Positions 532 to 16,439 of a stretch of DNA of 64,000 bases are shown here, in pieces. The notes below the pieces were generated by a model that was given only the letters and a program-made list of their open reading frames with translations, had not been told where the DNA came from and ran no database searches. The translations under genes and the position numbers were made by a program. Origin of the DNA: Thermoplasmata archaeon (lineage in GTDB: Archaea; Thermoplasmatota; Thermoplasmata; Halarchaeoplasmatales; Halarchaeoplasmataceae); contig PUNK01000024.1 of NCBI GenBank assembly GCA_003552585.1, positions 1 through 64,000 of the forward strand, read 5' to 3'. How positions within the stretch are numbered: position 1 is the stretch's first letter; every line of letters starts with the position of its first letter.

Positions 532-1920
532 ATGTTTAGGGATAATATTGAAAAACAGAGGATATTAAAAATATTTACAATTTTTTTAATTGCTAGTATT
601 ATTTCATCTGTAGCTCTTTTCCTATTCTCCACAGGAAACTCAGTCGAAGAAATGTGGCGAGCTGAAATCGGTCAGCAATGGAGAAAGGAGGAAGGGATCA
701 TTTACGCTAGTACACCAAATGAAAGGGGGGTGATCGCCTTTGATGTAAATGGTAATGAAATGTGGAGTTATAATCCCGATAATTCTTTAGAAGACATCGG
801 TGAGATCCGGCGGTTATCTATGGGAAAAGATGGTAATGTTCATGCGATCTATAATTCTACTTCTACAGTGACGGTAGTAACGGTCAATTCAAATGGACAG
901 GAAGTTTGGTCACTTAAAATAGAAGGTTACGATCCTTCTTCACCTGCAATCGCTGAAGACGGTACGATATACTTTATTGTAAACGGAAGAACTCTAGTTT
1001 CGATCGGGCCAGACGGTAGCCAAAGGTGGTACTATGAAACTGAACCACTTTTTGATAGAGCACCGATAATAGGCGATGATGGTACTGTATATATAACATC
1101 TAGAGAATACTACCTCCACGCTATCAACCCAGATGGAACGTTAAAATGGCAGATTCCAGCAGGATTTCCAGTGACGGTAAAGAATGATATAATCTATTAC
1201 GTTGATACACCTGAATATAATAAGGGGGTAGTAGTCGCTTTAGATTCAGATGGTGATGAGATATGGAAATATTATTTTCAAGGAATTGAGAGAGAAGGGT
1301 ATATTACTCGGATATTATTTAATTCTTTGTCTGTTATAGATGATGATATATATATCAGATATGTGTATTGTAGGCAAGAGGAAGGTCGAATAGGTATAGC
1401 ACCTTGTCCTGGTCCATATTGGGGGGTAATTATAAAACTTGATTCTGATGGCCTGGAGATGTGGTATAATCCTTTAGGCACCAGTAACGTCTTTCTTCAA
1501 CAACCTGTAATTGGTGATGATACTGTATTCATAGGAGGATGGGATTATCGATATGGGTTATACTCAATTTACGCTATAGATATAGAGGGTGAAGTAAAAC
1601 AATCATATCAATTTAGCAATCTAACAAACGCCCCTTTCATAGATGAACGAGGTATGGTATATCTATATGAACCTAATAATTTATCCTACTATACTCCAGA
1701 AGGTGAAGTGAAATGGGAATTTACAACTGAAGGAGAATTAGAACCTCGTAGGATATTAAGGGAGGACAATTCAATGTTTTTTAGATGCACCGAAGGATAC
1801 TTGTATGCGATCAAAGAGGAAAAAATTGAAGAGTATCTTAAAGTTGGTTTATTTTTATTTACTGCGATCTTGGCTGGAACCATAATTAGTGTATTTGTTT
1901 ATCAAACGAAGGAGGAATGA
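532..1920 (+). CDS. Membrane-anchored PQQ-like beta-propeller protein
   Basis: 462 residues with an N-terminal membrane helix (about residues 13-35), a large extracytoplasmic body and a second helix near the C-terminus (about 437-457) ending in a short charged tail. The body repeats short units of the type G-x-V/I-x-A-I/F-D-x-x-G-x-x-x-W, such as ALDSDGDEIWK and INPDGTLKWQ, which is the Trp-ending blade pattern of PQQ-binding-like (WD40-like) propellers. Such domains usually act as binding scaffolds. No catalytic signature is visible. It sits between a clan CD peptidase homologue and a beta-helix surface protein, so a cell-surface role is likely; the ligand is unknown. Confidence 0.7.
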   Translation: MFRDNIEKQRILKIFTIFLIASIISSVALFLFSTGNSVEEMWRAEIGQQWRKEEGIIYASTPNERGVIAFDVNGNEMWSYNPDNSLEDIGEIRRLSMGKDGNVHAIYNSTSTVTVVTVNSNGQEVWSLKIEGYDPSSPAIAEDGTIYFIVNGRTLVSIGPDGSQRWYYETEPLFDRAPIIGDDGTVYITSREYYLHAINPDGTLKWQIPAGFPVTVKNDIIYYVDTPEYNKGVVVALDSDGDEIWKYYFQGIEREGYITRILFNSLSVIDDDIYIRYVYCRQEEGRIGIAPCPGPYWGVIIKLDSDGLEMWYNPLGTSNVFLQQPVIGDDTVFIGGWDYRYGLYSIYAIDIEGEVKQSYQFSNLTNAPFIDERGMVYLYEPNNLSYYTPEGEVKWEFTTEGELEPRRILREDNSMFFRCTEGYLYAIKEEKIEEYLKVGLFLFTAILAGTIISVFVYQTKEE

Positions 1921-1964: not shown

Positions 1965-3588
1965 ATGTTAGAGATGAGAAAGATGGAAGGAAAATCCCGT
2001 CTTTTGACCTTGTGCATTATAGTGTCCATAATGCTAACATTGACCGTCACCCCCATCGTTTTTGCGGGCGAAGGAGAAGTACGGACAAGTGATAGTAGAA
2101 CACTTTCAGAGTCTGAAACAACTCTTTTACCACCTGAAGAACTAGTACCTAGAGAACCTATACGTATCCGTGGAGATGAGGAGTTCGCTGACAAAGCTGG
2201 TGAAGAAGGGTGGCCCGGAGATGGTAGCAAGGATGATCCGTATATCATACAGGGTTACAAAATAGATGGCGAAAATCAGGGATATGGTGTCTCAATTAGA
2301 GATACGGAATCATTTTTTATTTTAAGAGACTGTTATATATTCAATGCTAGTGGTTATCCTTATCCTACACACGGAGTCGAACTCCATGGTGTAAGATATG
2401 GAGTGATAGAGAATAATACTATTGCATATAACGAAGGTGATGGTATATATTTAAGAGAATCTGATAGTAATAAGTTAGTCGATAATGAGTTATTCGATAA
2501 CGGACATTCTAGTATCCGGATTGTGATGTCTAAAAACCACACTCTGACTGGTAATCGTATGGTCAACAATGGCATCGTAATAAGAGGGGACATTTTTTCA
2601 CCGGATCTTACGACTGATAAAATATCGTACTGGAACACGCACGAGATAGACACTACTAATACCGTTGAGGGGGAACCAGTTTATTACTGGAAGAATAAAA
2701 TAGGGGGCACTGTTCCTACAGGAGCGGGGCAGATTATCCTGGCAAATTGTACAGAAGTGACTGTAAAGGAACAAAATATTGAAAACGTTGAAATCGGTAT
2801 ATTGTTAGGACATTCCAGCGGCAACTTCGTCACAAACAACACCATAAATCACGGTTCTCGTGGTATTTCACTTTGGCACTCGAATGATAATAAAATTTCA
2901 AGTAACGAGATTAACGATAAATACAACGGCATCTATGTTTGGATATCAAAAAATAATCTAATTCAGAATAATAATATCAATGATAATCACGGATCAGGTA
3001 TGTTGATTAGAGCTTCTACGGAAAACAGAGTTTTGAAAAATGTAGTCAAATCAAACTCTAAACATGGAATCTATGTATTACGAGGGCAAATAATAAAATC
3101 GCCATGCGTTGATCATATTCCTACACTCTTTTCCAATGAAAACGTTGTAAACGATAATATCTGAGAATGGTAGGTCTGGTATATACATCAGAGGGAACCA
3201 GCTTAATGTTTTATCAAATAACACGATTTCAAACAACGAGTACGGGATCTATCTTAAAGATGCTAGAAACAACGAGATCTATCACAACAATTTCATAGAC
3301 AACGATGTTCAGGCCTTCGATGACGGTAACAATCATTGGAGTCTGGATCTTCCTAAAGGGGGAAACTACTGGTCGGACTGGTCCGGTCCGGAGGAAGATG
3401 GTATCATTCAGGAACCTCGTCCCATCGAAGGCGGTGACAACTATGATGAATATCCTTGGGCAGAATCTGACGGGTGGGTGGAGGATCCATCTAGTTACTT
3501 ATGGCTGGTGTTAGTGCTGGTCTTGGTAGGGGGTGTATCTGCTTATTGGTGGTGGTCTAAAAAGGATTCTTCGGAGGAGGTGTGGTAA
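1965..3588 (+). pseudogene. NosD-type right-handed beta-helix surface protein, broken by one frameshift
   Basis: An N-terminal signal helix (about residues 10-30) precedes a long run of Asn-rich beta-helix coils (patterns such as NNTIxxNxxGIxL), including the family-typical block YYWKNKIGGTVP followed by GAGQIILANCTEV. The first frame ends at 3164. The coils resume at once in another frame from 3163 (ENGRSGIYIRGN) and run through a typical NosD tail (GGNYWSDWSGPEEDG) to a C-terminal membrane helix and stop at 3588. Removing one base near 3162, or adding two, restores one continuous protein of about 540 residues. This is either a real inactivating frameshift or an assembly error. A surface or anchored role is inferred from signal and anchor. 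Confidence 0.75.
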
Positions 3589-4914
3589 GTGATCTGGGGC
3601 GGCGACGGACTGACCAACTTGGATGAGGCCGACGTGTACGGCACCGATCCGCTGAGTCCTGATACCGACGGCGACGGTGTATCGGATTACCATGAAATCA
3701 AGGGATGGAGTATTGACGATGCGGGAGAAGTAGTCCATGATGAAGATGGGATAACGACGGATCCGATAAATCCAGACACCGATTTCGATGGTTGGTTTGA
3801 TGGTCCCACCAACAGGGATGGCATATTGAAACTTCATTCGATAGATTGTTTTGTAAGCGATGGGATCGATTACATCTATCTGATATCTGATTGTATGAGA
3901 AGATATCCGGGATACGGTGAATGGTGGGAATTCACCCCAGGAGAGTATGAATATCCCAAAGCTGTCATCGACCGGCGTGTGGAAACACGATGGCCGACCT
4001 GGAACGAAGAATTTAATACCGTGTTCGACATATGGATAGATGACATAATCTTGGAGGAGATCGTACTTGATTGGGAGGCACCCGATGATCCTGACGGATA
4101 CAACGAATACGAGGTCGATATCGTGAGAGAAAATCAATGGGGCGAGGTGGTGCGGGATTACACCTTCACATTCCGCTCATACGTCAACTACTTCGCCGAC
4201 CCGGATCCTTTGGACTTCGACCACGAGCACGACACATCCGGCGACGGTATCTCGGATGCGGATACGTACCGGCTGTCCAGCGACCCACAGATAGACGGCA
4301 GGGCGCACCCGCTGCGTAAGGACGTGTTCGTAGAAGTCGATTGGATGGAGGGTGTGGATAGGTTGTCCGATGAGGCGAAGTGGCGTATCGGCACCCGCTT
4401 CTACGAGAACGATATCTGGCTGCACATCGACGACGGCAAGATGGGCGGTGGCGGAGAATTAGATGACTACGAAGAGAAAATAAGAAACTCAAACTGGGGA
4501 TTAGATAGAGGATATTTTTATCATCAAGAGAAGCCCGGTTTCCATTACTCTTTGTTGGCATATAAACAAGAAGAGGATAGTTTCCTTAATAGGATTCGAG
4601 GTAACGCCCCAGCGCCAGGTCTACGGTTTGCAATATATACAAAAAGAGCTTCAGGTACTGATTGGCAGGTCCATGTGTTTTTGCATGAGATAGGCCATAA
4701 CTTGATAGGACGCTACTATGTTGACAATCCAGATCATCCCCGTCATAATCCCCTCGCAAATCATTTTGTATATGAGGATGATCGAGATTATAGGGTACAT
4801 TGTGGTTGTGATGATTGTGCGCTTAGGCAGGGTTCATGGAGTCCGAGATCTGACCTTTGTGGTAATTGTTGGGATGCAATGAATTTCCAGTGGGAAGGAT
4901 GGAGGTCTAGATAG
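3589..4914 (+). CDS. TSP3-repeat zinc metallopeptidase homologue, cassette 1 (array head)
   Basis: The GTG start directly follows the TAA of the preceding frame, with no signal peptide. The protein begins inside a thrombospondin type 3-like Ca-binding repeat (GGDGLTNLDEA, then DTDGDGVSDYHE and DTDFDGWFDG), so the N-terminus looks lost. Residues about 193-290 are the block shared with cassettes 2 and 3 (KDVFVEVDWMEG, NDIWLHIDDGKMGGGGE). The zinc motif HEIGH is near residue 366, a possible Met-turn is DAMNF near the C-terminus, and a Cys-rich stretch (HCGCDDC) lies between them. The classical HExxHxxGxxH third His is absent. A membrane protein gene follows one base after the stop. Likely a secreted-type protease or protease toxin relative; export is uncertain without a signal. 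Confidence 0.75.
   Translation: MIWGGDGLTNLDEADVYGTDPLSPDTDGDGVSDYHEIKGWSIDDAGEVVHDEDGITTDPINPDTDFDGWFDGPTNRDGILKLHSIDCFVSDGIDYIYLISDCMRRYPGYGEWWEFTPGEYEYPKAVIDRRVETRWPTWNEEFNTVFDIWIDDIILEEIVLDWEAPDDPDGYNEYEVDIVRENQWGEVVRDYTFTFRSYVNYFADPDPLDFDHEHDTSGDGISDADTYRLSSDPQIDGRAHPLRKDVFVEVDWMEGVDRLSDEAKWRIGTRFYENDIWLHIDDGKMGGGGELDDYEEKIRNSNWGLDRGYFYHQEKPGFHYSLLAYKQEEDSFLNRIRGNAPAPGLRFAIYTKRASGTDWQVHVFLHEIGHNLIGRYYVDNPDHPRHNPLANHFVYEDDRDYRVHCGCDDCALRQGSWSPRSDLCGNCWDAMNFQWEGWRSR
4164..4456 (+). repeat. Cassette-conserved block, copy 1
   Basis: This GC-rich coding block of about 290 bp recurs at 6267-6569 and 7727-8092. Between 4291-4430 and 7853-7992 only one of 140 bases differs. GC is 67/120 over 4321-4440 but 37/100 over 4461-4560, just after the block. 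It encodes the N-terminal half of the peptidase domain and ends at the Gly-rich GGGGE hinge. Confidence 0.9.
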
Positions 4915-4915
4915 G

Positions 4916-5545
4916 ATGAGTTTGGTATCTTCAATAATAGACCCGAAAACACGTATCGGAAAGGTGATAGTTTTTCTAGCGGTCTTGATACTTCCGATGA
5001 TTGCGATATCGGGAACTTTAGAGGTTTATTCGAACGTAAGACATTCGGTACTGTTTTCTCCTCGTTCTCCAACACCTTACAGGTTTTCGTATAGCGTCGC
5101 TATCGAAGTAGAAGATCCAGTTCCATATACGATATATCTTCCAACACTTGTGCGGGAAGATGAGATGGGGCCGGTTCAAGAAATGCTTGATATTGAATTT
5201 CGAGAGGGAAACGCTGAAGTGGACCTTATCGAAACAGAGAAAGGTCATGCACTTAGAATCGAATCTGCCGATTCAATTGAACTCTATTTTTCCACTACAT
5301 TAGATGAAATGGAGGTTCCCCCGATACCAGGTCCTAATATGACCATGATGCTATCTAATAGTGATTCAGAGGTATCATATTATGCTTATCTGGGATCGGA
5401 AACAGATAATTTTGAAGCAGAATTATCGCTCAGATATGAAGTGGATTATCGTTCTAGTGATATTGAAGAATTTTCTGTAGTCAATATAGACCAACATTTA
5501 GAAATAGGTTGGAACGTTTTAGAAGGTCGATACTATCCGCCGTAA
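4916..5545 (+). CDS. Single-span membrane protein with extracytoplasmic beta-rich domain, partner of cassette 1
   Basis: 209 residues. One membrane helix (about residues 18-38) follows a short cytoplasmic start, and the remaining ~170 residues are hydrophilic and acidic with alternating beta-type patterns. The ATG lies one base after the stop of the metallopeptidase gene, implying tight translational coupling. No database family is recognised. Position directly behind a protease gene makes an inhibitor, immunity or anchoring role possible, but that rests on context alone. Unlike the other cassette partners it is not multipass and lacks the SGYHSS tail. Confidence 0.6.
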   Translation: MSLVSSIIDPKTRIGKVIVFLAVLILPMIAISGTLEVYSNVRHSVLFSPRSPTPYRFSYSVAIEVEDPVPYTIYLPTLVREDEMGPVQEMLDIEFREGNAEVDLIETEKGHALRIESADSIELYFSTTLDEMEVPPIPGPNMTMMLSNSDSEVSYYAYLGSETDNFEAELSLRYEVDYRSSDIEEFSVVNIDQHLEIGWNVLEGRYYPP

Positions 5546-5566
5546 GGATATATGAGATGATTATAC

Positions 5567-6244
5567 ATGACCGAAAGAGAGAAGATAAAAGGTGATGAGG
5601 TCGCAGATAGTTGCAAACCGATTTTATACCGCTTTTGGCCTATGATAGTGGGTATATTTTACTCTCTACTTATAGGTTCTTTTCTAATGTTTGCAACCGA
5701 TCACGATGTGGAACTTAACTTACTATCATCAATATCTACTATGATCCTGTTCGTTTCTATAGGAGTACTGCTTATTACAGTTAAGCATAGATTACAAGGA
5801 GAAAGGCTGTATTCCTATGGTGAAAAGGAAATCAGTATTCCTTTTATATCTCTCCCCCTTGCTCTATCCGGATGTGTATGCATTTTTATCAGTCTTTCTT
5901 TCTTAGCTGAACTGAGGTATCCAGGTGAATGGTTGTGGAATTTTTTTGAGATAAGGTTTGGATTTTCATTCTTATGGTGGCTTATCTTCCCTTTATTAGT
6001 TGGCATCTCTCTCTCCTTACTAAGTGTTCATTTTGAACAGGGCACTGTCCAGGACAAAACGTCCTGGGGCATCGGCCTGTTACTTATATTTTTGATACCT
6101 CTTCATGGTATAATATTTTTAGAGAAACTCTACACTGGTAAAAATTTCCTCTTACTTGTATACTCGATCGTAGCTATAGTGTTATTATGCATCATCTCCG
6201 GCTACCATTCATCAAAGATGCTTGAGGAATGTAATCATGAATAA
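5567..6244 (+). CDS. Six-helix membrane protein, cassette partner family (member 1)
   Basis: 225 residues with about six hydrophobic segments and the C-terminal sequence CIISGYHSSKMLEECNHE. The same tail (CI-x-SGYHSS-x-x-L-x-E-x-NH) ends the proteins at 7159-7710 and 8642-9214, so the three are paralogues with the same spacing of helices. The stop overlaps the start of the next metallopeptidase gene by 8 bases. The family is not recognised. In a toxin/immunity reading it would be the membrane-located protector. Alternatives are a protease-processing or export partner. Confidence 0.65.
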   Translation: MTEREKIKGDEVADSCKPILYRFWPMIVGIFYSLLIGSFLMFATDHDVELNLLSSISTMILFVSIGVLLITVKHRLQGERLYSYGEKEISIPFISLPLALSGCVCIFISLSFLAELRYPGEWLWNFFEIRFGFSFLWWLIFPLLVGISLSLLSVHFEQGTVQDKTSWGIGLLLIFLIPLHGIIFLEKLYTGKNFLLLVYSIVAIVLLCIISGYHSSKMLEECNHE

Positions 6245-7073
6245 CTATGAACATAGATACGAACAGTTCACCTTCCGCTCGTATGTGAACTACTTCCCCG
6301 ACCCTGATCCGTTGGACTTCGACCACGAGCACGACGCGTCCGGCGACGGTATCTCGGACGCCGATACATACTGGCTGTCCAATGACGAGTTGGTCGCGGG
6401 CCGAGCGCACCCGTTCCGCAAAGACGTGTTCGTGGAGGTCGATTGGATGGAGGGTGTGGAGAGGTTGTCCGATGAAGCGAAGTGGCGTATCGGCACCCGC
6501 TTCTACGAGAACGATATCTGGCTGCACATCGACGACGGCAAGATGGGCGGTGGCGGGGAAGTGCCTTATTTATCAACGATATATAACAATCATGATAATG
6601 AAGCATTGACCCTTGATGGCTACCAGGACGCTTATTTTACGCCGGAGAGAGAAGGGCTGTTCCGCTATGGTCTGATGGCGGATTATGTTTACCATGATAA
6701 CCCCGGATGGCCTTTAGACGTGGATGACTGGTGGCCAGACTGGTTCCCATGGGATCCCTTTGAAGGACGAAATGTACTAGGTTTTGCCAGCTCCGGTAGG
6801 TTCGTGGTAAGTCAACGAAGAGACCTCCTCGCTGATTTGACTACAAATCCGGGTACGGTGTTCATGCACGAATTAGGGCACACCGTTGGTCTTTGGTCTG
6901 GCGTATATGAGGGTATAGATAGCTGGCGATTTCACGATGAATATCCAAGTCTGATGAGCTATTGGACACTTTGGACACGTTCAAATTTCTACAATTACTC
7001 GGATGGTACTAATCATGAAGATGATTTCGATGATTGGGGCTATATCCGGGAAAACTTACACGAGGGGATCTGA
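6237..7073 (+). CDS. Zinc metallopeptidase homologue, cassette 2 (orphan form without leader)
   Basis: Starts at the ATG homologous to that of cassette 3, with GAGG about 9 bases upstream; an in-frame ATG at 6222 is less likely. After about 10 residues it enters the conserved block (FTFRSYVNYF to GGGGEVPY), then a region similar to cassette 3 (YFTPEREGLFRYGLMAD) and the zinc motif HELGH at about residue 211. The Met-turn candidate is SLMSYW. The residue at the usual third-His position is Ser, and an Asp in YEGID follows. There is no signal peptide and none of the TSP3 region found in cassette 1. That is the layout expected of an orphan C-terminal module able to recombine with a full-length gene. 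Confidence 0.75.
   Translation: MNNYEHRYEQFTFRSYVNYFPDPDPLDFDHEHDASGDGISDADTYWLSNDELVAGRAHPFRKDVFVEVDWMEGVERLSDEAKWRIGTRFYENDIWLHIDDGKMGGGGEVPYLSTIYNNHDNEALTLDGYQDAYFTPEREGLFRYGLMADYVYHDNPGWPLDVDDWWPDWFPWDPFEGRNVLGFASSGRFVVSQRRDLLADLTTNPGTVFMHELGHTVGLWSGVYEGIDSWRFHDEYPSLMSYWTLWTRSNFYNYSDGTNHEDDFDDWGYIRENLHEGI
6267..6569 (+). repeat. Cassette-conserved block, copy 2
   Basis: Second copy of the GC-rich block, more diverged than copies 1 and 3 (for example a different stretch at 6387-6420). It is followed by the hinge plus GAAGTGCCTTAT, shared only with copy 3. Similarity then drops sharply and base composition becomes AT-richer. Confidence 0.9.
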
Positions 7074-7158
7074 TTGATCCCGATTCCCTATTCGAATAAC
7101 CGGCAGTTTAATAGAGTAGAAACTGCTTCAGAACATACTCAAAGAGGTACGAACGAAT

Positions 7159-7710
7159 ATGAGTAAAAAAGGTGAGCAACCTTTAAAATATAGTATATTA
7201 TTCGGTACAGGGGCTTTCTTATATACGTTCAGTTTCATCTTTTTTGCATCGGATGGTGGTGAAGGTTCTTTTATTTTTTTCTGTAGTTTCGTATTACCAA
7301 CATATTTGTTTTTGGTGATACTGTCTTTGGTGACTGTTTCTGTTTACCGTGAAAACACGTTGACAAAAAGATTGTTGATCGCTGGATCTGTAGTTCTAAC
7401 CCTTTCTTTTTTATTTTTACTAGCATTAGGTGATTTATTCAAAATCTCCTTTATAATATTTTATCCTAGCCTCACTCTTGTTATGTTGGGTTTTCATTAC
7501 CTATCCCCATCACCCAGTAGGTTTTCAAGATATGTCGGTTTGGCTTTAGCAATCTCTATCTCTTTCATAGGGATGATTCTTTTTATGATATTATTCGAGT
7601 ATCCGTATCATCTGTATCTTTTACTAGCGATATGTACAGCGACCTTATGCATTCTCTCCGGTTATCATTCATCTAGGATGCTTAAGGAGGACAACCATGA
7701 TAAAATGTGA
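7159..7710 (+). CDS. Six-helix membrane protein, cassette partner family (member 2)
   Basis: 183 residues with six predicted membrane helices and the family tail CILSGYHSSRMLKEDNHDKM. An AGAGGTA ribosome-binding site precedes the ATG. The last 14 bases overlap the start of cassette 3, whose ribosome-binding site (AAGGAGG) lies inside this gene, so the two are translationally coupled. Helices 1-5 diverge from the 5567 and 8642 paralogues while the C-terminus is nearly fixed, which fits recombination at the cassette junction. Function unknown; candidate immunity or partner protein for the preceding metallopeptidase. Confidence 0.65.
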   Translation: MSKKGEQPLKYSILFGTGAFLYTFSFIFFASDGGEGSFIFFCSFVLPTYLFLVILSLVTVSVYRENTLTKRLLIAGSVVLTLSFLFLLALGDLFKISFIIFYPSLTLVMLGFHYLSPSPSRFSRYVGLALAISISFIGMILFMILFEYPYHLYLLLAICTATLCILSGYHSSRMLKEDNHDKM

Positions 7711-7741
7711 CCGCAGATATAATGAGTTCACCTTCCACTCA
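7636..7741 (+). repeat. Junction repeat, copy 1 (membrane-protein tail plus next cassette start)
   Basis: 106 bp matching 9140-9245 with four mismatches. It covers the last ~25 codons of the membrane protein, the AAGGAGG ribosome-binding site, the ATG and the first ~15 codons of the metallopeptidase. A more diverged version spans 6189-6280. Confidence 0.9.
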
Positions 7742-8599
7742 TATGTGAACTACTTCACCGACCCGGGTCCGTTGTACTTCGACCACGAGCACGACGCATC
7801 CGGCGACGGTATCTCGGATGCGGATACGTACTGGCTGTCCAGCGATCCGTTGATAGACGGCAGGGCGCACCCGCTGCGTAAGGACGTGTTCGTAGAAGTC
7901 GATTGGATGGAGGGTGTGGATAGGTTGTCCGATGAGGCGAAGTGGCATATCGGCACCCGCTTCTACGAGAACGATATCTGGCTGCACATCGATGCCCGTT
8001 TCACTCCGATGAATCAAAGATTCATCTGCATCCTCGAAAACGGGTTTCCTGCGGACGACGGCAAGATGGGCGGTGGCGGGGAAGTGCCTTATCAACCACA
8101 ACTTGACTCTACTCAGCGAAGAGAGTATTACGAAACATATTTCACTCCTGATCGAATAAATCTGTTCAGGTATGGATTGATGGCAGATGAATTATTAGAT
8201 AGTAGTGATGATCCTCGAGCAGGATTTGCTATAGGGGATCGTTTTTATGTTGCAGACGGGTGGATTAGAACTGATCCAAAAGTTAAAGCTGGAGAGGTAT
8301 TCCAATTTTATGATATACCTACAGCCATAACTGGTACATTCATGCATGAGTTGGGACATACATTCGGTTTGTCAGGAAAAAATGAAGATGCGCCAGGTTA
8401 TTTTGAAGGTATTGATAATCCAGACACAAGGTTTTCATGGCAAACTGGTTGGTGGACATATGCAGATTATGAAAGTTGTATGAATTATAGGTATATTTGG
8501 ACGAGAATTGATTACTCAGATGGGACTGGCGAGGAAAATGACCATGATGATTGGACAGTGGTGGGAAACAACATAGGCTATCCGTTTGGAGATGATTGA
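7697..8599 (+). CDS. Zinc metallopeptidase homologue, cassette 3 (orphan form with palindromic insertion)
   Basis: 300 residues, with a strong AAGGAGG seven bases before the ATG. It begins directly at the conserved block and carries 21 extra residues after WLHID that cassettes 1 and 2 lack. It continues through GGGGEVPY, a cassette 2-like middle (YFTPDRINLFRYGLMAD), HELGH near residue 217 and a Met-turn candidate SCMNYRY. The usual third zinc ligand position again is not His; an Asp in FEGID is a candidate. No signal peptide. The 3' half is AT-rich compared with the block. A related membrane protein gene follows after about 40 bases. Confidence 0.75.
   Translation: MIKCDRRYNEFTFHSYVNYFTDPGPLYFDHEHDASGDGISDADTYWLSSDPLIDGRAHPLRKDVFVEVDWMEGVDRLSDEAKWHIGTRFYENDIWLHIDARFTPMNQRFICILENGFPADDGKMGGGGEVPYQPQLDSTQRREYYETYFTPDRINLFRYGLMADELLDSSDDPRAGFAIGDRFYVADGWIRTDPKVKAGEVFQFYDIPTAITGTFMHELGHTFGLSGKNEDAPGYFEGIDNPDTRFSWQTGWWTYADYESCMNYRYIWTRIDYSDGTGEENDHDDWTVVGNNIGYPFGDD
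7727..8092 (+). repeat. Cassette-conserved block, copy 3 (interrupted)
   Basis: Third copy of the GC-rich block, almost identical to copy 1 from 7853 to 7992 and split by the 63-nt insertion at 7994-8056. The remaining piece matches copy 2 through GAAGTGCCTTAT. Confidence 0.9.
7994..8056 (+). repeat. 63-nt in-frame palindromic insertion
   Basis: Extra DNA inside the conserved block, absent from both other copies. It contains a perfect inner inverted repeat, GATGAATC-AAA-GATTCATC, and an outer pair, CCCGTTT and AAACGGG, so it can fold into a nested hairpin. Its length is a multiple of three and it has no stop codon, so the host protein stays open with 21 extra residues. No second copy was seen in the window. 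Confidence 0.85.
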
Positions 8600-8641
8600 A
8601 ATGAGCTGGTGTGTGTTTGAAATGTGCGAGAGAGGTATAAA

Positions 8642-9214
8642 ATGATCCAGGCCATGAAAGAAAAAATTCACAATATAAAACCATTGATAATTGGTGTTTT
8701 CTTTGGGACTGGAATTATGCTTTATTCGGTGTCACCATTAACAGCGAATGATCATGAATTTGTCTTACCACTAATATTCATGGTCGGTTCTTACCTATTC
8801 CTCTTATCAGTATCTATAGCTGCCTTAATGACATACCGGGAAGATTTTGTGAGTAATTCGAGAAGATATCTTAAACTCATAGGGTTCTTTCTTATTTTAC
8901 TCTCATTTTTATCTATGATTCCCTTGCATGGTGTAATGTACATATCATCCGTCTTTTTTCTCTATGGAGGCATATCTTTAACAATGCTTGGCCTTCATTT
9001 ACAAGTAGCTGATTTGACCAACTACCTTGGACAAACAGGTGTTGTACTAGCCATAGCCATTTCATTTATGTCCGTATTTCAATTTTCAATCATATTTCGT
9101 CTAGAAACAAATTTTTACTGGATCGTATTAGGGGTAAGCACAGCGACCTTATGCATCTTCTCCGGTTATCATTCATCTAGGCTGCTTAAGGAGGACAACC
9201 ATGATAAAATGTGA
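8642..9214 (+). CDS. Six-helix membrane protein, cassette partner family (member 3)
   Basis: About 190 residues from the ATG at 8642, chosen because GAGAGGT lies six bases upstream; a GTG at 8624 is the alternative. Six hydrophobic segments are followed by the shared tail CIFSGYHSSRLLKEDNHDKM. The final bases overlap the start of a truncated fourth cassette at 9201. It is the last intact gene of the array. Same unrecognised family and same inference as the other members. Confidence 0.65.
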   Translation: MIQAMKEKIHNIKPLIIGVFFGTGIMLYSVSPLTANDHEFVLPLIFMVGSYLFLLSVSIAALMTYREDFVSNSRRYLKLIGFFLILLSFLSMIPLHGVMYISSVFFLYGGISLTMLGLHLQVADLTNYLGQTGVVLAIAISFMSVFQFSIIFRLETNFYWIVLGVSTATLCIFSGYHSSRLLKEDNHDKM

Positions 9215-9245
9215 CCGCAGATATAATGAGTTCACCTTCCTCTCA
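9140..9245 (+). repeat. Junction repeat, copy 2 (array end)
   Basis: Matches 7636-7741 with four mismatches in 106 bp and then stops. Beyond 9245 the sequence is unrelated and soon enters the 3' end of an oppositely oriented chromosomal gene, so this marks one edge of the array. Confidence 0.9.
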
Positions 9246-9314
9246 CCAGTAAATCTGCTGATACCGTCAAATCACTCCTTGATCGCATCAGGCAAAGTCA
9301 CAGAGATCAGGTAA
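9201..9314 (+). pseudogene. Truncated metallopeptidase cassette 4 (start only)
   Basis: ATG, ribosome-binding site and first ~15 codons (MIKCDRRYNEFTF) are the same as in cassette 3. The homology then ends and the frame runs into unrelated sequence to a TAA at 9312-9314, overlapping the 3' end of the opposite-strand gene at 9272. It is the remnant of a further cassette lost by deletion or left at an insertion boundary. Confidence 0.8.
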
Positions 9315-11178: not shown

Positions 11179-11738
11179 TCCCACTCTTCCATCCTCCTTA
11201 TCAGGTTTTTCAACCATCTTTCGTATCCTTTATCTTTTATCAATGAACTGATCATAGCACTTACACCGTTGACATCGTAGAGGAAGGCGGTGCGGTCGCT
11301 GAGCAAAAATTCTGTTATGACCTCGTCACCGATGAATCTCTTAAGTTCATCCGGTTCCTCCATCATATTCTGAAGTTCCTCGCTGCTTATCTCCCGTACC
11401 GATCTCACCTTGCTCAGGAACCAACCGCGAAGCTTACTCTCTAATTTTTCCCGGGAAAATTCGGACCCTTTGAGAGCTCCCCTCACATAAACTTTTACAC
11501 TAGGCATGAGCAGATGAGTGATATCTTCGAATCCGCTCATATCAATCCACTCATCTGGATCCGAGCTATCTCTCAATACTTTATCTAGTACTACGAGGCC
11601 TGAAAATACAAAAAAACCCAGCAAAAAAATGCTCCGTAGAGGACCGCCGATAGCGAACATAAGGATCATGGATGCGATCGCCCCGAGCAAAAAGACAGGA
11701 GCTGAACCGGACTGTTCAAAAAATCCGCTCTCTTTCAT
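11175..11738 (-). CDS. Hypothetical membrane protein of DUF58 operon
   Basis: 187 residues. Two adjacent membrane helices (about residues 13-50) are followed by a soluble, mainly helical, charged domain. Four-base overlaps on both sides (with the DUF4129 gene upstream and DUF58 downstream) place it firmly in the operon. Family not recognised; small two-helix proteins of this kind often sit between DUF4129 and DUF58 genes in archaea. Confidence 0.65.
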   Translation of the reverse strand: MKESGFFEQSGSAPVFLLGAIASMILMFAIGGPLRSIFLLGFFVFSGLVVLDKVLRDSSDPDEWIDMSGFEDITHLLMPSVKVYVRGALKGSEFSREKLESKLRGWFLSKVRSVREISSEELQNMMEEPDELKRFIGDEVITEFLLSDRTAFLYDVNGVSAMISSLIKDKGYERWLKNLIRRMEEWE

Positions 11739-12625
11739 AATCTCTCTCCAAGTTCGTTTTTCAAAGTTCGCAAACTTTCCATGGCTGAGTTCTTATCCTT
11801 TTCACCAAGTTCATGCGAGCTGTATCTTGCTTCCTCGAATATCGAAGTGATGCTCGAGATGCTTTTCTGGGATACATCCAATTCGTTCATCGCTTTTTCT
11901 CTGAACTCTCTCGGAGTGAAGGATTCGTCTTCCCTCACACCCTGCCTCTCCAGATGTTTACTCATCTCGGCGTAACATCTGATTATTGTTGATCGGACAT
12001 CCTTTCCTTTGATGAGGTCGTCCAGCGTCCTATCTATAGTATCACTCATCTGCTCTTTAACGGTGATTTCTTCTGTTTCCCGTCTCTCCATCTTGTATAA
12101 TACAAATTTAACGAGAAGTATTATCGATATCGCTCCTACGAGAAATGCAGGTATGATAAACGAACCGCTGGCAGATATAGTTCCACTGTCCGCGTTATAA
12201 GAGGATGGATCAGGTACACCTCCTGAAACATCAGGCCAAACAGTATCAGGTCTAGGATTGGCGAATGCATATAATAGATAATAGAAAAAACCAACGATGA
12301 CGACCGCAAAAATAAATGACCAGGCCAGCTTTGCAGGAGAATCGTAAATCGAATACATTATGTTGGCGATGATGGTAAAAACTATGAGGACTAGAAATGT
12401 TGCTAGCAAAAATTGTCTCGTTCTAATTCCTAGATTTTCAAATAGAAGAAGATCTCCCCCTGTCTCAGTACCGGTCCCTCTTTCACCGGTATATCCTACA
12501 GCACCTTCTGCGAGCTCTGGGAATATGAATACCAAATTTCCCATGAGCCATGCAGCTAACAGCACAAGCAAAAGTGCAAAGGACGTGATTGTTTTTTTAT
12601 CGAATTCCAGGTGGATCATCTCCAT
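11735..12625 (-). CDS. DUF4129 membrane protein, copy 2
   Basis: 296 residues with helices near residues 12-33, 75-95, 100-125 and 155-175, then a cytoplasmic C-terminal domain with the DUF4129 pattern (CYAEMSKHLERQG, FTPREFREKA, IFEEARYS). It is clearly paralogous to the protein at 12698-13573 over the whole C-terminus. DUF4129 domains accompany MoxR/DUF58 systems; the biochemical role is unknown. The ATG at 12625 has an in-frame alternative two codons on. Confidence 0.8.
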   Translation of the reverse strand: MEMIHLEFDKKTITSFALLLVLLAAWLMGNLVFIFPELAEGAVGYTGERGTGTETGGDLLLFENLGIRTRQFLLATFLVLIVFTIIANIMYSIYDSPAKLAWSFIFAVVIVGFFYYLLYAFANPRPDTVWPDVSGGVPDPSSYNADSGTISASGSFIIPAFLVGAISIILLVKFVLYKMERRETEEITVKEQMSDTIDRTLDDLIKGKDVRSTIIRCYAEMSKHLERQGVREDESFTPREFREKAMNELDVSQKSISSITSIFEEARYSSHELGEKDKNSAMESLRTLKNELGERL

Positions 12626-12697: not shown

Positions 12698-13573
12698 TCA
12701 TCGGTCCACCTCTAACTCCTTTTTCAGCTTCTCGAGATTTTCGATCGCTGTTTCTTTCTCTTTCTCACCTAATTCATGGTTGCTGTATCTCGCTTCCTCG
12801 AATATGGATGTGATTTTATATACACTCTCCTGAGACACGTCTAGTTGTTTTATGGCTTGGGCTCTGAACTCTCTCGGTGTAAATGAATCCTCTTCACTTA
12901 TCCCCTTCTCTTCCAGCTTATCGATCATCTCAGCATAGCATCTCATTATGGAGGAACGTACATCCTTCCCCTCGTAGAGATCCTCTAGTGTGCGGTCTAT
13001 GGTTTCAGCTACTACCTCTTTTACCTCCTCCTCCTCTTCTCCTTTATCCTTAAGCCATAAAACGACCATGGAAAAGACGAACACACCTGAAAGGGCTCCC
13101 ATTAGCAAAACAGGTATCATGAAGGGGGAAGTTGCACTTTCGGGTAGATCAACACCATTTTCTAAAGCAGGAGGATCCACGGGAACGTATCCCCTTCCGG
13201 GTATGGACTGAGCACAGATATCGGTCCTTGGGATAAGTGTGAAAAGCAGGAGGAATACGGATAAAGATACTATTGCGATCAAAAATTGTTGGGGCAATTC
13301 TAATTCTGAATCGAATAGGAAGTAATACAGGTTCAACATCACGGCAAGGGCGATGATAGCAGCTGCTAGAGAGATAAGAAAGCGTTTGAGGTTCGGGGAA
13401 AAAAAGCCGGGAGTTTCCTCCCCTTCATCGGGAGCTCTCATCTCTCTTCTGAGAATACCGAACTCCCCATCTGACAGTTCTGAAAAAGTATAGACTATAT
13501 TACCCATGAACCAAGTAGCAAATAGCACCAGGATTATAGCTATCGCACCTATATTCTTTTTGTTGAATTCCAT
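12698..13573 (-). CDS. DUF4129 membrane protein, copy 1 (operon head)
   Basis: 291 residues, four membrane helices and an acidic linker (DKGEEEEEVKEVV) before the DUF4129 domain (CYAEMIDKLEEKG, FTPREFRAQA, IFEEARYSNHELGE). First gene of the leftward operon. About 140 bp separate it from the divergent alaS, so both promoters lie there. It duplicates the next gene, which is unusual for this operon type. Confidence 0.8.
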   Translation of the reverse strand: MEFNKKNIGAIAIILVLFATWFMGNIVYTFSELSDGEFGILRREMRAPDEGEETPGFFSPNLKRFLISLAAAIIALAVMLNLYYFLFDSELELPQQFLIAIVSLSVFLLLFTLIPRTDICAQSIPGRGYVPVDPPALENGVDLPESATSPFMIPVLLMGALSGVFVFSMVVLWLKDKGEEEEEVKEVVAETIDRTLEDLYEGKDVRSSIMRCYAEMIDKLEEKGISEEDSFTPREFRAQAIKQLDVSQESVYKITSIFEEARYSNHELGEKEKETAIENLEKLKKELEVDR

Positions 13574-13712
13574 GTATTTAGATCCATCAATGATACGGTC
13601 TTTTACCGTATTTAAATCAGTTGTTAAAGTACGATAAAAAATTTGTTGTAAAAACCGATTTTCTCTTTTACGTTGGCGAATATTTATTATATCCCGATGA
13701 TTTCGTGAACTT

Positions 13713-16439
13713 ATGTTCGAAGAGGAGTATCGGCTGGAATTCTTCGAAGAAAAGGATTATATAAGGAAGGAATGCAGGGAATGCGGCTCATATTTCTGGA
13801 CCCTCGATGTGGACCAAGAACACTGCCAGGATGCACCCTGTGTGGAATACGGTTTCATCAACGATCCCCCTTTTGATAGGGAGATAACAGTTTCAGAGAT
13901 GAGAGAATACTTTTTGACCTTTTTCGAAGAGAGGGACCATACCCGTGTCGAGAGATATCCCGTGGTAGCGCGCTGGAGGAACGATGTGTTCCTTGTTCAT
14001 GCAAGTATTTACGATTTCCAGCCGCATGTAACTTCGGGACTGGTACCCCCACCCGCCAATCCTTTGGTCGTTTCTCAACCGTGTATCAGATTACCGGATC
14101 TAGATGAAGTAGGTAAAACCGGTAAGCACCTCACCAGCTTCGAGATGATGGGACACCACTCCTTCAACTCCGAAGAGAATTTCGTATATTGGAAGGAAGA
14201 AACCGTGAAGTTCTGTCATGAGATGCTTCTAGAGATGGGTGTTCCTGAGGAGGAGATAATTTACAAGGAACATCCTTGGATCGGAGGAGGGAACGCAGGT
14301 CCTTCTTTGGAAGTTAATGTAAGGGGTCTGGAATTGGCGACCCTCGTCTTCATGAATATGGAAAGGGATGAAGACGGGGATGTGGAAATCGATGGGGAGA
14401 GATACAGTCCTCTTGACCTCAACGTGGTGGATACTGGCTACGGTCTTGAGAGATGGGTATGGATGTCTGATGGCTCCCCTACTATTTACGACTCTTTGTA
14501 TCCCGATATAGTGCAGATGGTGTGTAAAAGTGCTGGTGTAAAGCACGATCTAGATGATCCCGATTACAAAAAATTGCTCGAAGAATACACCAAGCTGGCC
14601 GGTGCCATGGACAGCGATTATCAGGACGAAGTGTTGATAGATGAACTCATGGAAAGGGTGGGTGCTTTCGACAGAGGATGGATTGAGAAACAGATGGAGA
14701 AGCTTGGCTCAGTTTATACGATAGCCGATCATGCAAGAACGATCGCTTTCATGCTGACCGACGGGGTGGTTCCATCGAACGTTGAGGAGGGATATCTGAC
14801 AAGGATGGTTATCAGAAGGGCTCTAAGACAGATGGGAAGGTTAGGTGTAGATAGACCTCTCCATGATCTTGTGGCAGCTCAGCTGAAAAAATTCGATGAT
14901 GTTATAGACAAATCTAAAAAAGATTTAGTTTTTGATATGCTGGACTCCGAAGTGGAGCGTTATCGGGAAACCTTAGAAAGAGGTAAAAGGCTTATAGAAA
15001 GAGAACTCGATAGTATATCCGGGGACAAGATATCTTTAGATAAACTGATCGAGTATTATGATACTCATGGTATCCATCCGACCGTGGTCAAAGAGGTCGC
15101 AAAAGACCATGATGTCCAGGTGGAGATCCCTGATAATTTTAATGCGATCCTGGCAGAGATGCATTCTGCTCCCTCTCTAGAGGCAGAATCTGTCAAGGCT
15201 AAAGGATGGGACTTACCGGATACCGAACTTCTTTTCTACGATGCAGAATCACAAAGAGAGTTCGATGCCCGGGTGATCTGGTCCGAAGAAGGGGAAGTGG
15301 TCTTAGACCGAACAATTTTCTACCCTGAGGGCGGAGGACAGCTGACAGACAAAGGTTTGCTTCAGGTTGAAGGGAAGGAATTTCAGGTCACAAATGTTCG
15401 AAGGGAAGACGAGGTCGTGATCCACGAGATCGATGGTGAAATCAGGGTGGGGAAAAGGGTTCATGGCGTGGTCGACTGGGAGCGTCGAATGGCACTCACC
15501 CGGAATCACACGGCCACTCACTTGATCATGAGCAGTGCACGGGAAGTTTTGGGCTCTCATATCTGGCAGAGGGGTGCTCATAAGGATGTGGATAAAGCTA
15601 GACTTGACCTATCACATCACCGAAGAATAAACCGGGAAGAATTGAAAAAAATCGAGAAGAGGGCTAACGAACTCGTCCTTGAAGGCATTCCTGTAGTCAA
15701 AGAAGAACTATCCAGAGATGAAGCGGAGAGCAGGTTCGGTTTCGAGCTCTACCAGGGCGGCGTTCCAACCAGTGAAGTCATAAGGGTTGTTCACATATCT
15801 GATGTTAGGGATTACGATGCACAGGCCTGTGGGGGAACCCATGTAGATAATACTGCTGAGATCGGGTTCATCAAGATCTTATCTTCTCAGAGGATACAGG
15901 ATGGAGTGGAGAGACTTGTTTATTCCGCGGGCATCTCGGCTTTAGATCACGTGCAGCATCAAGAAGACATACTCCGAAGGACTTGTGATGTCTTCAGCGT
16001 CGATCCTGAAGAGCTACCTTCGACAGCCAAGAGATTCTTCGAAGAGTGGAAGGAACGTGGAAAGGAGCTTGAAAAGTTGAAGGAATACCGCTCTATCGCG
16101 GTGGCTGATAGTCTTCTCCCAGGGGAAGTTGAGGATGATATAGAGTTTGTTATAGCCGAACTTGATATGGGCACAAAAGAGATGCTCGCCACAGCTGAAA
16201 AGATATCCCAGGAGAACGGAAGAGTGGTGTTGTTCGCCTCTCGGAAGGAAGGAGTGAATTTAGTATTTTCCCGCAGTGGAGACGTAGATGTTAATATGGT
16301 TGATATATTGAGAGAATCTGCTAAGCTTATCCAGGGCGGTGGAGGAGGCACACCTCGAACAGCTCAAGGCGGGGGAAGTGATCCATCTAAGATAGATGAA
16401 GCTTTGAAAAAAGGAAAGGAATTGGTGTTAGAGGGTTAG
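13713..16439 (+). CDS. alaS: Alanyl-tRNA synthetase, archaeal type
   Basis: 908 residues, the usual length of archaeal AlaRS. The archaeal N-terminal extension with CRECGSYFW is followed by the class II catalytic core (motifs around EMMGHHSF and GYGLERWVW), tRNA-recognition helices, then the editing domain with the zinc-binding pairs HTATH (about residue 598) and CGGTH (about 704), and a DHHA1-type C-terminus with the Gly-rich GGGGGTPRTAQGGG. It charges tRNA-Ala and clears mischarged Ser/Gly. A TATA-like TATTTATTATAT at about 13680 lies so close to the ATG that the mRNA is probably nearly leaderless. A tRNA-Ala gene with the G3:U70 identity pair sits 0.7 kb downstream. Confidence 0.97.
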   Translation: MFEEEYRLEFFEEKDYIRKECRECGSYFWTLDVDQEHCQDAPCVEYGFINDPPFDREITVSEMREYFLTFFEERDHTRVERYPVVARWRNDVFLVHASIYDFQPHVTSGLVPPPANPLVVSQPCIRLPDLDEVGKTGKHLTSFEMMGHHSFNSEENFVYWKEETVKFCHEMLLEMGVPEEEIIYKEHPWIGGGNAGPSLEVNVRGLELATLVFMNMERDEDGDVEIDGERYSPLDLNVVDTGYGLERWVWMSDGSPTIYDSLYPDIVQMVCKSAGVKHDLDDPDYKKLLEEYTKLAGAMDSDYQDEVLIDELMERVGAFDRGWIEKQMEKLGSVYTIADHARTIAFMLTDGVVPSNVEEGYLTRMVIRRALRQMGRLGVDRPLHDLVAAQLKKFDDVIDKSKKDLVFDMLDSEVERYRETLERGKRLIERELDSISGDKISLDKLIEYYDTHGIHPTVVKEVAKDHDVQVEIPDNFNAILAEMHSAPSLEAESVKAKGWDLPDTELLFYDAESQREFDARVIWSEEGEVVLDRTIFYPEGGGQLTDKGLLQVEGKEFQVTNVRREDEVVIHEIDGEIRVGKRVHGVVDWERRMALTRNHTATHLIMSSAREVLGSHIWQRGAHKDVDKARLDLSHHRRINREELKKIEKRANELVLEGIPVVKEELSRDEAESRFGFELYQGGVPTSEVIRVVHISDVRDYDAQACGGTHVDNTAEIGFIKILSSQRIQDGVERLVYSAGISALDHVQHQEDILRRTCDVFSVDPEELPSTAKRFFEEWKERGKELEKLKEYRSIAVADSLLPGEVEDDIEFVIAELDMGTKEMLATAEKISQENGRVVLFASRKEGVNLVFSRSGDVDVNMVDILRESAKLIQGGGGGTPRTAQGGGSDPSKIDEALKKGKELVLEG

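What the first reader, a model, noticed from the sequence alone, without database searches (positions are those of the whole stretch)
3589..9314. Array of metallopeptidase cassettes with fixed front block and divergent active-site halves, each paired with a membrane protein
Three genes share a block of about 290 bp at very high identity, then diverge through the part containing HExGH. Each is followed by a membrane-protein gene, and a fourth cassette is reduced to its start. Only the first carries the TSP3 region; cassettes 2 and 3 begin at the shared block without a signal. This is the layout of polymorphic-toxin loci (complete gene followed by orphan toxin/immunity modules), here in an archaeon with protease tails. 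Alternative: a protease family kept similar by gene conversion. Because the tails of cassettes 2 and 3 are homologous, diversity may lie within one fold.
Basis: partly seen in the sequence, partly recalled or inferred. Interest (0 to 1): 0.88.

Follow-up and report, generated by a model that had tools for sequence, protein, structure and literature searches.

The report
Archaeal protease cassettes with swapped tails
An uncultured archaeon of the Thermoplasmata carries a row of half-protease genes that share one nearly identical front piece but have different active-site halves, each followed by membrane-protein genes; relatives show the pieces being exchanged by recombination, as in bacterial toxin cassettes, although toxicity itself is unproven.

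Summary
Three genes share a ~290-bp block (85-94% identical) and then diverge through the HExGH half. The block exceeds the tail by 43-73 identity points in 13 of 15 array pairs, against 7.9 +/- 7.5 (maximum 31) in 703 control pairs. The repeat also includes the last ~20 codons of the preceding membrane gene. A related genus (G012) holds the complete form: a 1755-aa signal/beta-helix/PKD/TSP3 gene ending in block + tail, then orphan cassettes. There the window's first tail sits in orphan position, while the window's orphan tail 2 matches the complete gene's tail. Block and tail trees conflict (AU p=0.005). The partner genes are 99.9% identical across the two genera, where a housekeeping protein shares 49%. 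So this is cassette exchange with polymorphic-toxin layout. Two qualifications: the 'fixed front' is the N-terminal half of the catalytic domain, so recombination splits one metzincin-like fold; and most distant homologues are single secreted proteases without partners, so toxin/immunity function is only inferred. In the window the array has no signal-bearing head. Best reading: a headless archaeal polymorphic-protease array with membrane partners that may be inhibitors.

The parts
3589..4914 (+). cassette 1 (c1): TSP3 repeats + linker + block + type A tail (HEIGH, Cys-rich end); no signal peptide, 5'-truncated relative of the 1755-aa gene of G012
   Evidence: ORF; TSP3 weak Pfam match; front homologous to L029 9787-10032 and 10567-10767
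4165..4467 (+). block copy 1 (N-terminal half of the metzincin-like domain: FVEVDWM strand, helix, LHIDDG strand)
   Evidence: GC 0.58 against 0.42 in its tail
4468..4914 (+). type A tail with HEIGH; 90% aa identical to the orphan cassette of G012
   Evidence: ORF; AF2 pLDDT 70; family found next to zincins in other genomes
5567..6244 (+). partner gene 1b: multipass membrane protein, 225 aa, 100% aa identical to the G012 copy
6181..6569 (+). repeat arm 2: end of partner 1b + start of c2 + block copy 2
6237..7073 (+). cassette 2 (c2): block + type B tail (HELGH)
   Evidence: its tail is 71% aa identical to the tail of the G012 full-length gene
7159..7710 (+). partner gene 2: multipass membrane protein, 183 aa
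7622..8092 (+). repeat arm 3: end of partner 2 + start of c3 + block copy 3, with 63-nt insert at 7991-8053
7697..8599 (+). cassette 3 (c3): block + type B-like tail (HELGH), 42% aa identical to c2 tail
8642..9214 (+). partner gene 3: multipass membrane protein, 190 aa (alternative GTG start 8624)
9126..9245 (+). repeat arm 4, truncated
   Evidence: 92.5% identical to 7622-7741
9201..9314 (+). cassette 4 stub, 37 aa, cut off after about 15 codons of shared sequence

Best explanation
A headless cassette array of an archaeal polymorphic-protease system. In the complete form (G012) a large secreted surface protein (signal, beta-helix, PKD, TSP3 stalk) ends in a metzincin-like protease. Downstream lie orphan cassettes, each made of the N-terminal half of that protease domain (the constant arm), an alternative active-site half and the membrane-partner gene(s), ending in the next constant arm. 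Homologous recombination between the arms replaces the active-site half together with its partner, and modules or parts of them move between genera. Shown: layout, homology arms, different histories of block and tail, exchanged front and orphan positions, near-identical partner genes in two genera. Inferred: the protease acts on neighbouring cells or their surface proteins, and the membrane-anchored ectodomain (with or without the multipass protein) protects the producer, i.e. acts as immunity/inhibitor. Orphans without a signal are probably silent stock.
For: Complete gene + orphans in G012. Window 4165-6532 equals G012 13423-15790 ungapped at 96.9%, front position here, orphan there; conversely the tail of the G012 front gene is 71% identical to window orphan 2. 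Block joins c2+z (100/99) and rejects c2+F (AU p=0.0048), whereas the tail joins c2+F (99/97). Block dS 0.14-0.69 against mostly saturated tails. Block/tail split far outside 703 control pairs. 4966-6532: 2 mismatches in 1567 bp between genera, whose CCA-adding enzyme shares 49% aa. Ectodomain partner directly downstream of the protease in G000, G012 (x3), G003, G039, G029, L024 and G098. Same TSP3 stalk joined (across a frameshift) to a different, Vps62-like tail + 3-TM protein in G003.
Against: No toxicity or inhibition data. c2 and c3 lack the ectodomain gene. F and c2 tails are alike (71%) with different partners (multipass 32%). The window array has no secreted head in the 91%-complete MAG. 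Homologues elsewhere in the phylum are mostly single secreted proteases, several per genome, fitting a digestive role. All are MAGs; the near-identical 1.57 kb could in principle come from chimeric assembly.
Confidence: 0.55

Rival explanations
1. A secreted digestive or surface-processing protease family with tandem copies, in which gene conversion keeps the front half alike and tails diversify for different substrates; the membrane partners are anchors, maturation factors or self-protection against a digestive enzyme, with no role in conflict.
For: The same protease family is widespread in the phylum (81 of 390 genomes, often 3-6 or more matches each) as full-length secreted proteases without partners; bacterial members are also single genes; tails stay within one fold.
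Against: Ordinary tandem paralogues show no block/tail split; orphan cassettes have no signal and would not be secreted; tails exchange positions between front and orphan genes and travel with partner genes between genera.
Confidence: 0.27
2. A surface-variation system: silent tails recombine into one expressed surface protein to change what the surface shows to viruses or predators, the protease activity being secondary.
For: Stalk with beta-helix, PKD and TSP3 domains and silent headless cassettes; arm-mediated exchange.
Against: HExGH is kept in every tail and partner genes move with the tails, which surface variation does not need.
Confidence: 0.07
3. A decaying relic: a 5'-truncated front gene, orphan copies and a stub left by unequal recombination, without present function.
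For: c1 lacks a signal and starts directly after the stop of the upstream beta-helix gene; stub at the 3' end; no head found elsewhere in the MAG.
Against: All three cassettes and all four partner genes are intact ORFs, catalytic motifs are kept, block dN/dS is low (dN 0.03-0.06 against dS 0.14-0.53 within the window), and the partner genes were exchanged recently.
Confidence: 0.11

Closest known systems
Bacterial polymorphic toxin systems (Zhang et al. 2012, PMC3482391), including CDI and Rhs orphan toxin/immunity cassettes
   Same: Long secreted front protein with constant body and variable C-terminus, downstream standalone cassettes with adjacent partner gene, exchange by recombination; zincin toxin domains (Tox-MPTase1-5, HopH1-like) are known there
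   Different: The constant arm contains the N-terminal half of the enzyme domain, so the swap lies inside one fold; partners are membrane proteins; no toxicity shown; archaeal; protease related to metzincin/TSP3 zincins and not tested against the Tox-MPTase families
VARTIG modules of Thermococcales (Makarova et al. 2021, PMC8416519)
   Same: Archaeal, long surface protein first, recombining variable part, downstream membrane-protein genes, organisation compared to polymorphic toxins
   Different: VARTIG varies Ig domains and has no recognised toxin or enzyme; here the variable part carries a zinc-protease motif
TSP3-associated metzincin-like secreted proteases of Thermoplasmatota and bacteria (G101, G038, L019, L022, L028 and others)
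   Same: Same domain, including the D-FVEVD ... LHIDxG...GG ... HExGH pattern
   Different: Single full-length genes, no orphan cassettes, no block/tail split, mostly no partner
Serralysin / adamalysin / archaemetzincin metzincins
   Same: HExxH, Met-turn-like motif, predicted strand-helix-strand then active-site helix
   Different: Usual third zinc histidine (HExxHxxGxxH) is missing in the array tails; PDB similarity is weak (sequence E 6e-5, fold E 0.013)

Membership tests
Polymorphic toxin system (definition after Zhang et al. 2012) | Long multidomain secreted protein with constant N-terminal trafficking/presentation part | tested here: met
   Met in G012 (1755 aa: signal, beta-helix, PKD, TSP3), but not in the window, where c1 is 5'-truncated without a signal
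Polymorphic toxin system (definition after Zhang et al. 2012) | C-terminal domain replaced by recombination with standalone cassettes | tested here: met
   Tails in exchanged positions, conflicting block/tail trees, block/tail identity split
Polymorphic toxin system (definition after Zhang et al. 2012) | Constant part ends before the toxin domain, so a whole toxin domain is exchanged | tested here: not met
   Shared block holds conserved residues and predicted strands/helix of the protease domain; only the active-site half is exchanged
Polymorphic toxin system (definition after Zhang et al. 2012) | Diverse, structurally unrelated toxin domains on one body | tested here: inconclusive
   All array tails are zincin-like; one Vps62-like tail on the same TSP3 stalk in G003, but across a frameshift and with a weak Pfam match, E 0.0023 below cut-off
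Polymorphic toxin system (definition after Zhang et al. 2012) | Adjacent gene gives immunity to the cognate toxin | not testable with these tools
   Adjacency shown in at least seven genomes; pairing not strict (F and c2); function unknown
Polymorphic toxin system (definition after Zhang et al. 2012) | C-terminal domain is toxic to other cells | not testable with these tools
Metzincin zinc peptidases | HExxHxxGxxH/D zinc-binding consensus | tested here: not met
   HE[LI]GH is kept, but the third ligand position is not His/Asp in c1-c3; bacterial homologues L022 and L028 keep GLGH
Metzincin zinc peptidases | Met-turn and metzincin fold | tested here: inconclusive
   MSY/MNY after HExxH in c2/c3; AF2 pLDDT 50 with zincin-like order of elements, Foldseek best hit archaemetzincin E 0.013; PDB profile search finds serralysin E 6e-5
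VARTIG | Hypervariable Ig-domain protein of Thermococcales | tested here: not met
   No Ig domain in the variable part; PKD/TSP3 stalk with protease tail

The most novel reading that the evidence does not exclude
An archaeal polymorphic-weapon system in which the exchanged unit is half an enzyme: recombination inside the metzincin-like domain creates proteases with new specificity, each protected against by a co-moving membrane-anchored inhibitor, and partner (immunity) genes spread between genera on their own.
Probability: 0.3. Interest if true: 0.85.

Novelty: new variant of a known kind. Interest (0 to 1): 0.6.

Why it matters
Per Makarova et al. 2021 (PMC8416519), archaeal polymorphic toxins are predicted mostly with nuclease tails and none had then been experimentally characterised. 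A protease version with recombination inside the enzyme fold, visible exchange between two genera and a conserved membrane-anchored partner gives a concrete, testable archaeal case, and a candidate family of protease inhibitors.

Tried and rejected
Palindromic insert as a repeated element: only one copy in the own genome and weak folding (z -1.6), so no claim. Polyphyly of array tails with respect to other families: not shown (array tails form one weak clade, 70/68); I therefore rest on block/tail conflict and the identity split. Ectodomain fold: no PDB match below E 0.001. Protease structure: low confidence, used only for order of elements. Viral origin: no relative in viral contigs. Known defence families: no PADLOC hit. 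Plasmid search gave one single, partnerless homologue in Halorussus salilacus. G425 alternating zincin/lipoprotein genes looked like another array but share no block. Makarova et al. 2019 (mBio) was not held, so its archaeal toxin list could not be checked.

Full report
What is there. The window is the start of contig C10 of a 1.84-Mb MAG, 91% complete, of the Thermoplasmata: its family member G012 corresponds to the record 'Thermoplasmata archaeon isolate T1Sed10_113R1' by matching contig lengths and positions. Three ORFs (3589-4914, 6237-7073, 7697-8599) share a block of about 290 bp and then diverge; a 37-aa stub starts a fourth copy. Each is followed by a multipass membrane protein of one family (25-38% identical among the window's cassettes). 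The repeated DNA begins in the last ~20 codons of each membrane gene, crosses the overlapping stop/start and ends in the block. The cassettes thus form a chain: [tail + partner] units separated by ~350-bp homology arms.

Not chance and not ordinary conservation. Aligning 44 relatives, 703 pairs that exclude the array show block-minus-tail identity of 7.9 +/- 7.5 points (maximum 31). Thirteen of 15 array pairs show 43-73 points; the exceptions are c1/o2 and c2/F, whose tails are of the same type. Tandem paralogues elsewhere in the phylum show none of this. Block dS is 0.14-0.69, while most tail comparisons are saturated. GC is 0.55-0.58 in the blocks, 0.39-0.46 in the tails and 0.34-0.40 in the partners.

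The complete form. In G012 (same family, other genus) L029 holds a 1755-aa gene with signal, beta-helix, PKD and TSP3 domains, ending in block + type B tail, followed by an ectodomain gene and a 410-aa multipass gene (itself a duplication, halves 27% identical). Then comes an orphan cassette (block + type A tail), ectodomain and multipass genes, and the start of a third block at the contig end. The window's first cassette carries the type A tail, 90% identical to that orphan, and the window's second cassette carries a tail 71% identical to that of the G012 front gene. A second G012 contig (L030) has a further copy with partners.

Recombination. Block sequences unite c2 with z (100/99) and reject c2 with F (AU p=0.0048); tails unite c2 with F (99/97). 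Compared with G012, window 4165-4965 differs at 9.4% of positions, but 4966-6532 at 2 of 1567. That stretch covers nearly all of the ectodomain gene, the multipass gene and the next arm. A housekeeping protein (CCA-adding enzyme) of the two genomes is only 49% identical. So the partner genes moved between genera very recently, and later than the tail next to them. Chimeric assembly cannot be excluded without reads.

What the block is. Relatives in archaea and bacteria conserve, within the block, D-FVEVD and LHIDxG...GG, and within the tail HExGH and a Met-turn-like motif. The predicted order is strand-helix-strand in the block and active-site helix in the tail (low confidence). The profile resembles serralysin/adamalysin/myroilysin metzincins (E 6e-5 at best). 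The block is therefore the first half of the protease domain, not a delivery or pre-toxin domain, and recombination joins two halves of one fold.

The partner. The ectodomain family lies directly downstream of this protease in G000, G012 (three times), G003 (at a contig end), G039, G029, L024 and G098, in several families. More distant members also stand alone beside housekeeping genes. The multipass family was found only in the G000 and G012 arrays among 61 genomes. In G003 the same TSP3 stalk (80% identical) follows an ectodomain gene and runs, across a frameshift, into a Vps62-like domain (Pfam E 0.0023, below cut-off) and a 3-TM protein: a possible non-protease tail.

Interpretation. The mechanics are those of polymorphic toxin cassettes (Zhang et al. 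2012, PMC3482391): one recombination replaces the tail and brings its partner. The likeliest role is antagonism with the membrane-anchored partner as immunity, but this is inference. Against it: outside this group the family is mostly single secreted proteases, several per genome (81 of 390 genomes of the phylum); c2 and c3 lack the ectodomain; F and c2 have similar tails but different partners; and the window's array has no secreted head. I give 0.55 to the polymorphic-protease reading and 0.27 to a digestive protease family with gene conversion.

Noticed in passing
window 7991-8053; also L029 15783-15856 and L030 end: A 63-nt in-frame insert with inverted repeats splits the block of cassette 3 (adds ARFTPMNQRFICILENGFPA-like residues); the same insert lies at the ends of two G012 contigs, where assembly stopped. 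Single copy in the own genome.
   Followed up: partly
window 1965-3588: Beta-helix (NosD-like) surface gene with a frameshift near 3164; its second half is in frame with cassette 1 and separated from it by a single stop codon (TAAGTG), as if a deletion had joined it to the truncated protease gene.
   Followed up: partly
window 532-1920 and L030 1-6937: PQQ-type beta-propeller surface proteins lie upstream of the arrays in both genomes, suggesting an island of large surface proteins.
   Followed up: no
L092 (G003:C63) about 4299-5936, minus strand: TSP3 stalk fragment followed across a frameshift by a Vps62-like domain and a 103-aa 3-TM protein, directly behind a zincin tail and ectodomain gene.
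   Followed up: partly
L165 (G425:C40): Two diverged HELGH proteases (one with many TSP3 repeats) alternate with a small lipoprotein and a small 2-TM protein in another class of the phylum.
   Followed up: partly
G541:C50, G535:C26, G545:C178, G543:C215, G412:C1: Adjacent or nearby full-length proteases of this family in other classes, several further copies per genome, without ectodomain partners.
   Followed up: partly
window 11735-12625 and 12698-13573, minus strand: Two adjacent paralogous membrane proteins whose C-terminal coding parts are 70% identical over 269 bp.
   Followed up: no
L117 (Halorussus salilacus plasmid NZ_CP099994.1, 310809-312293): A single homologue of the protease on a haloarchaeal plasmid, without partner, in a cultivated species.
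   Followed up: partly
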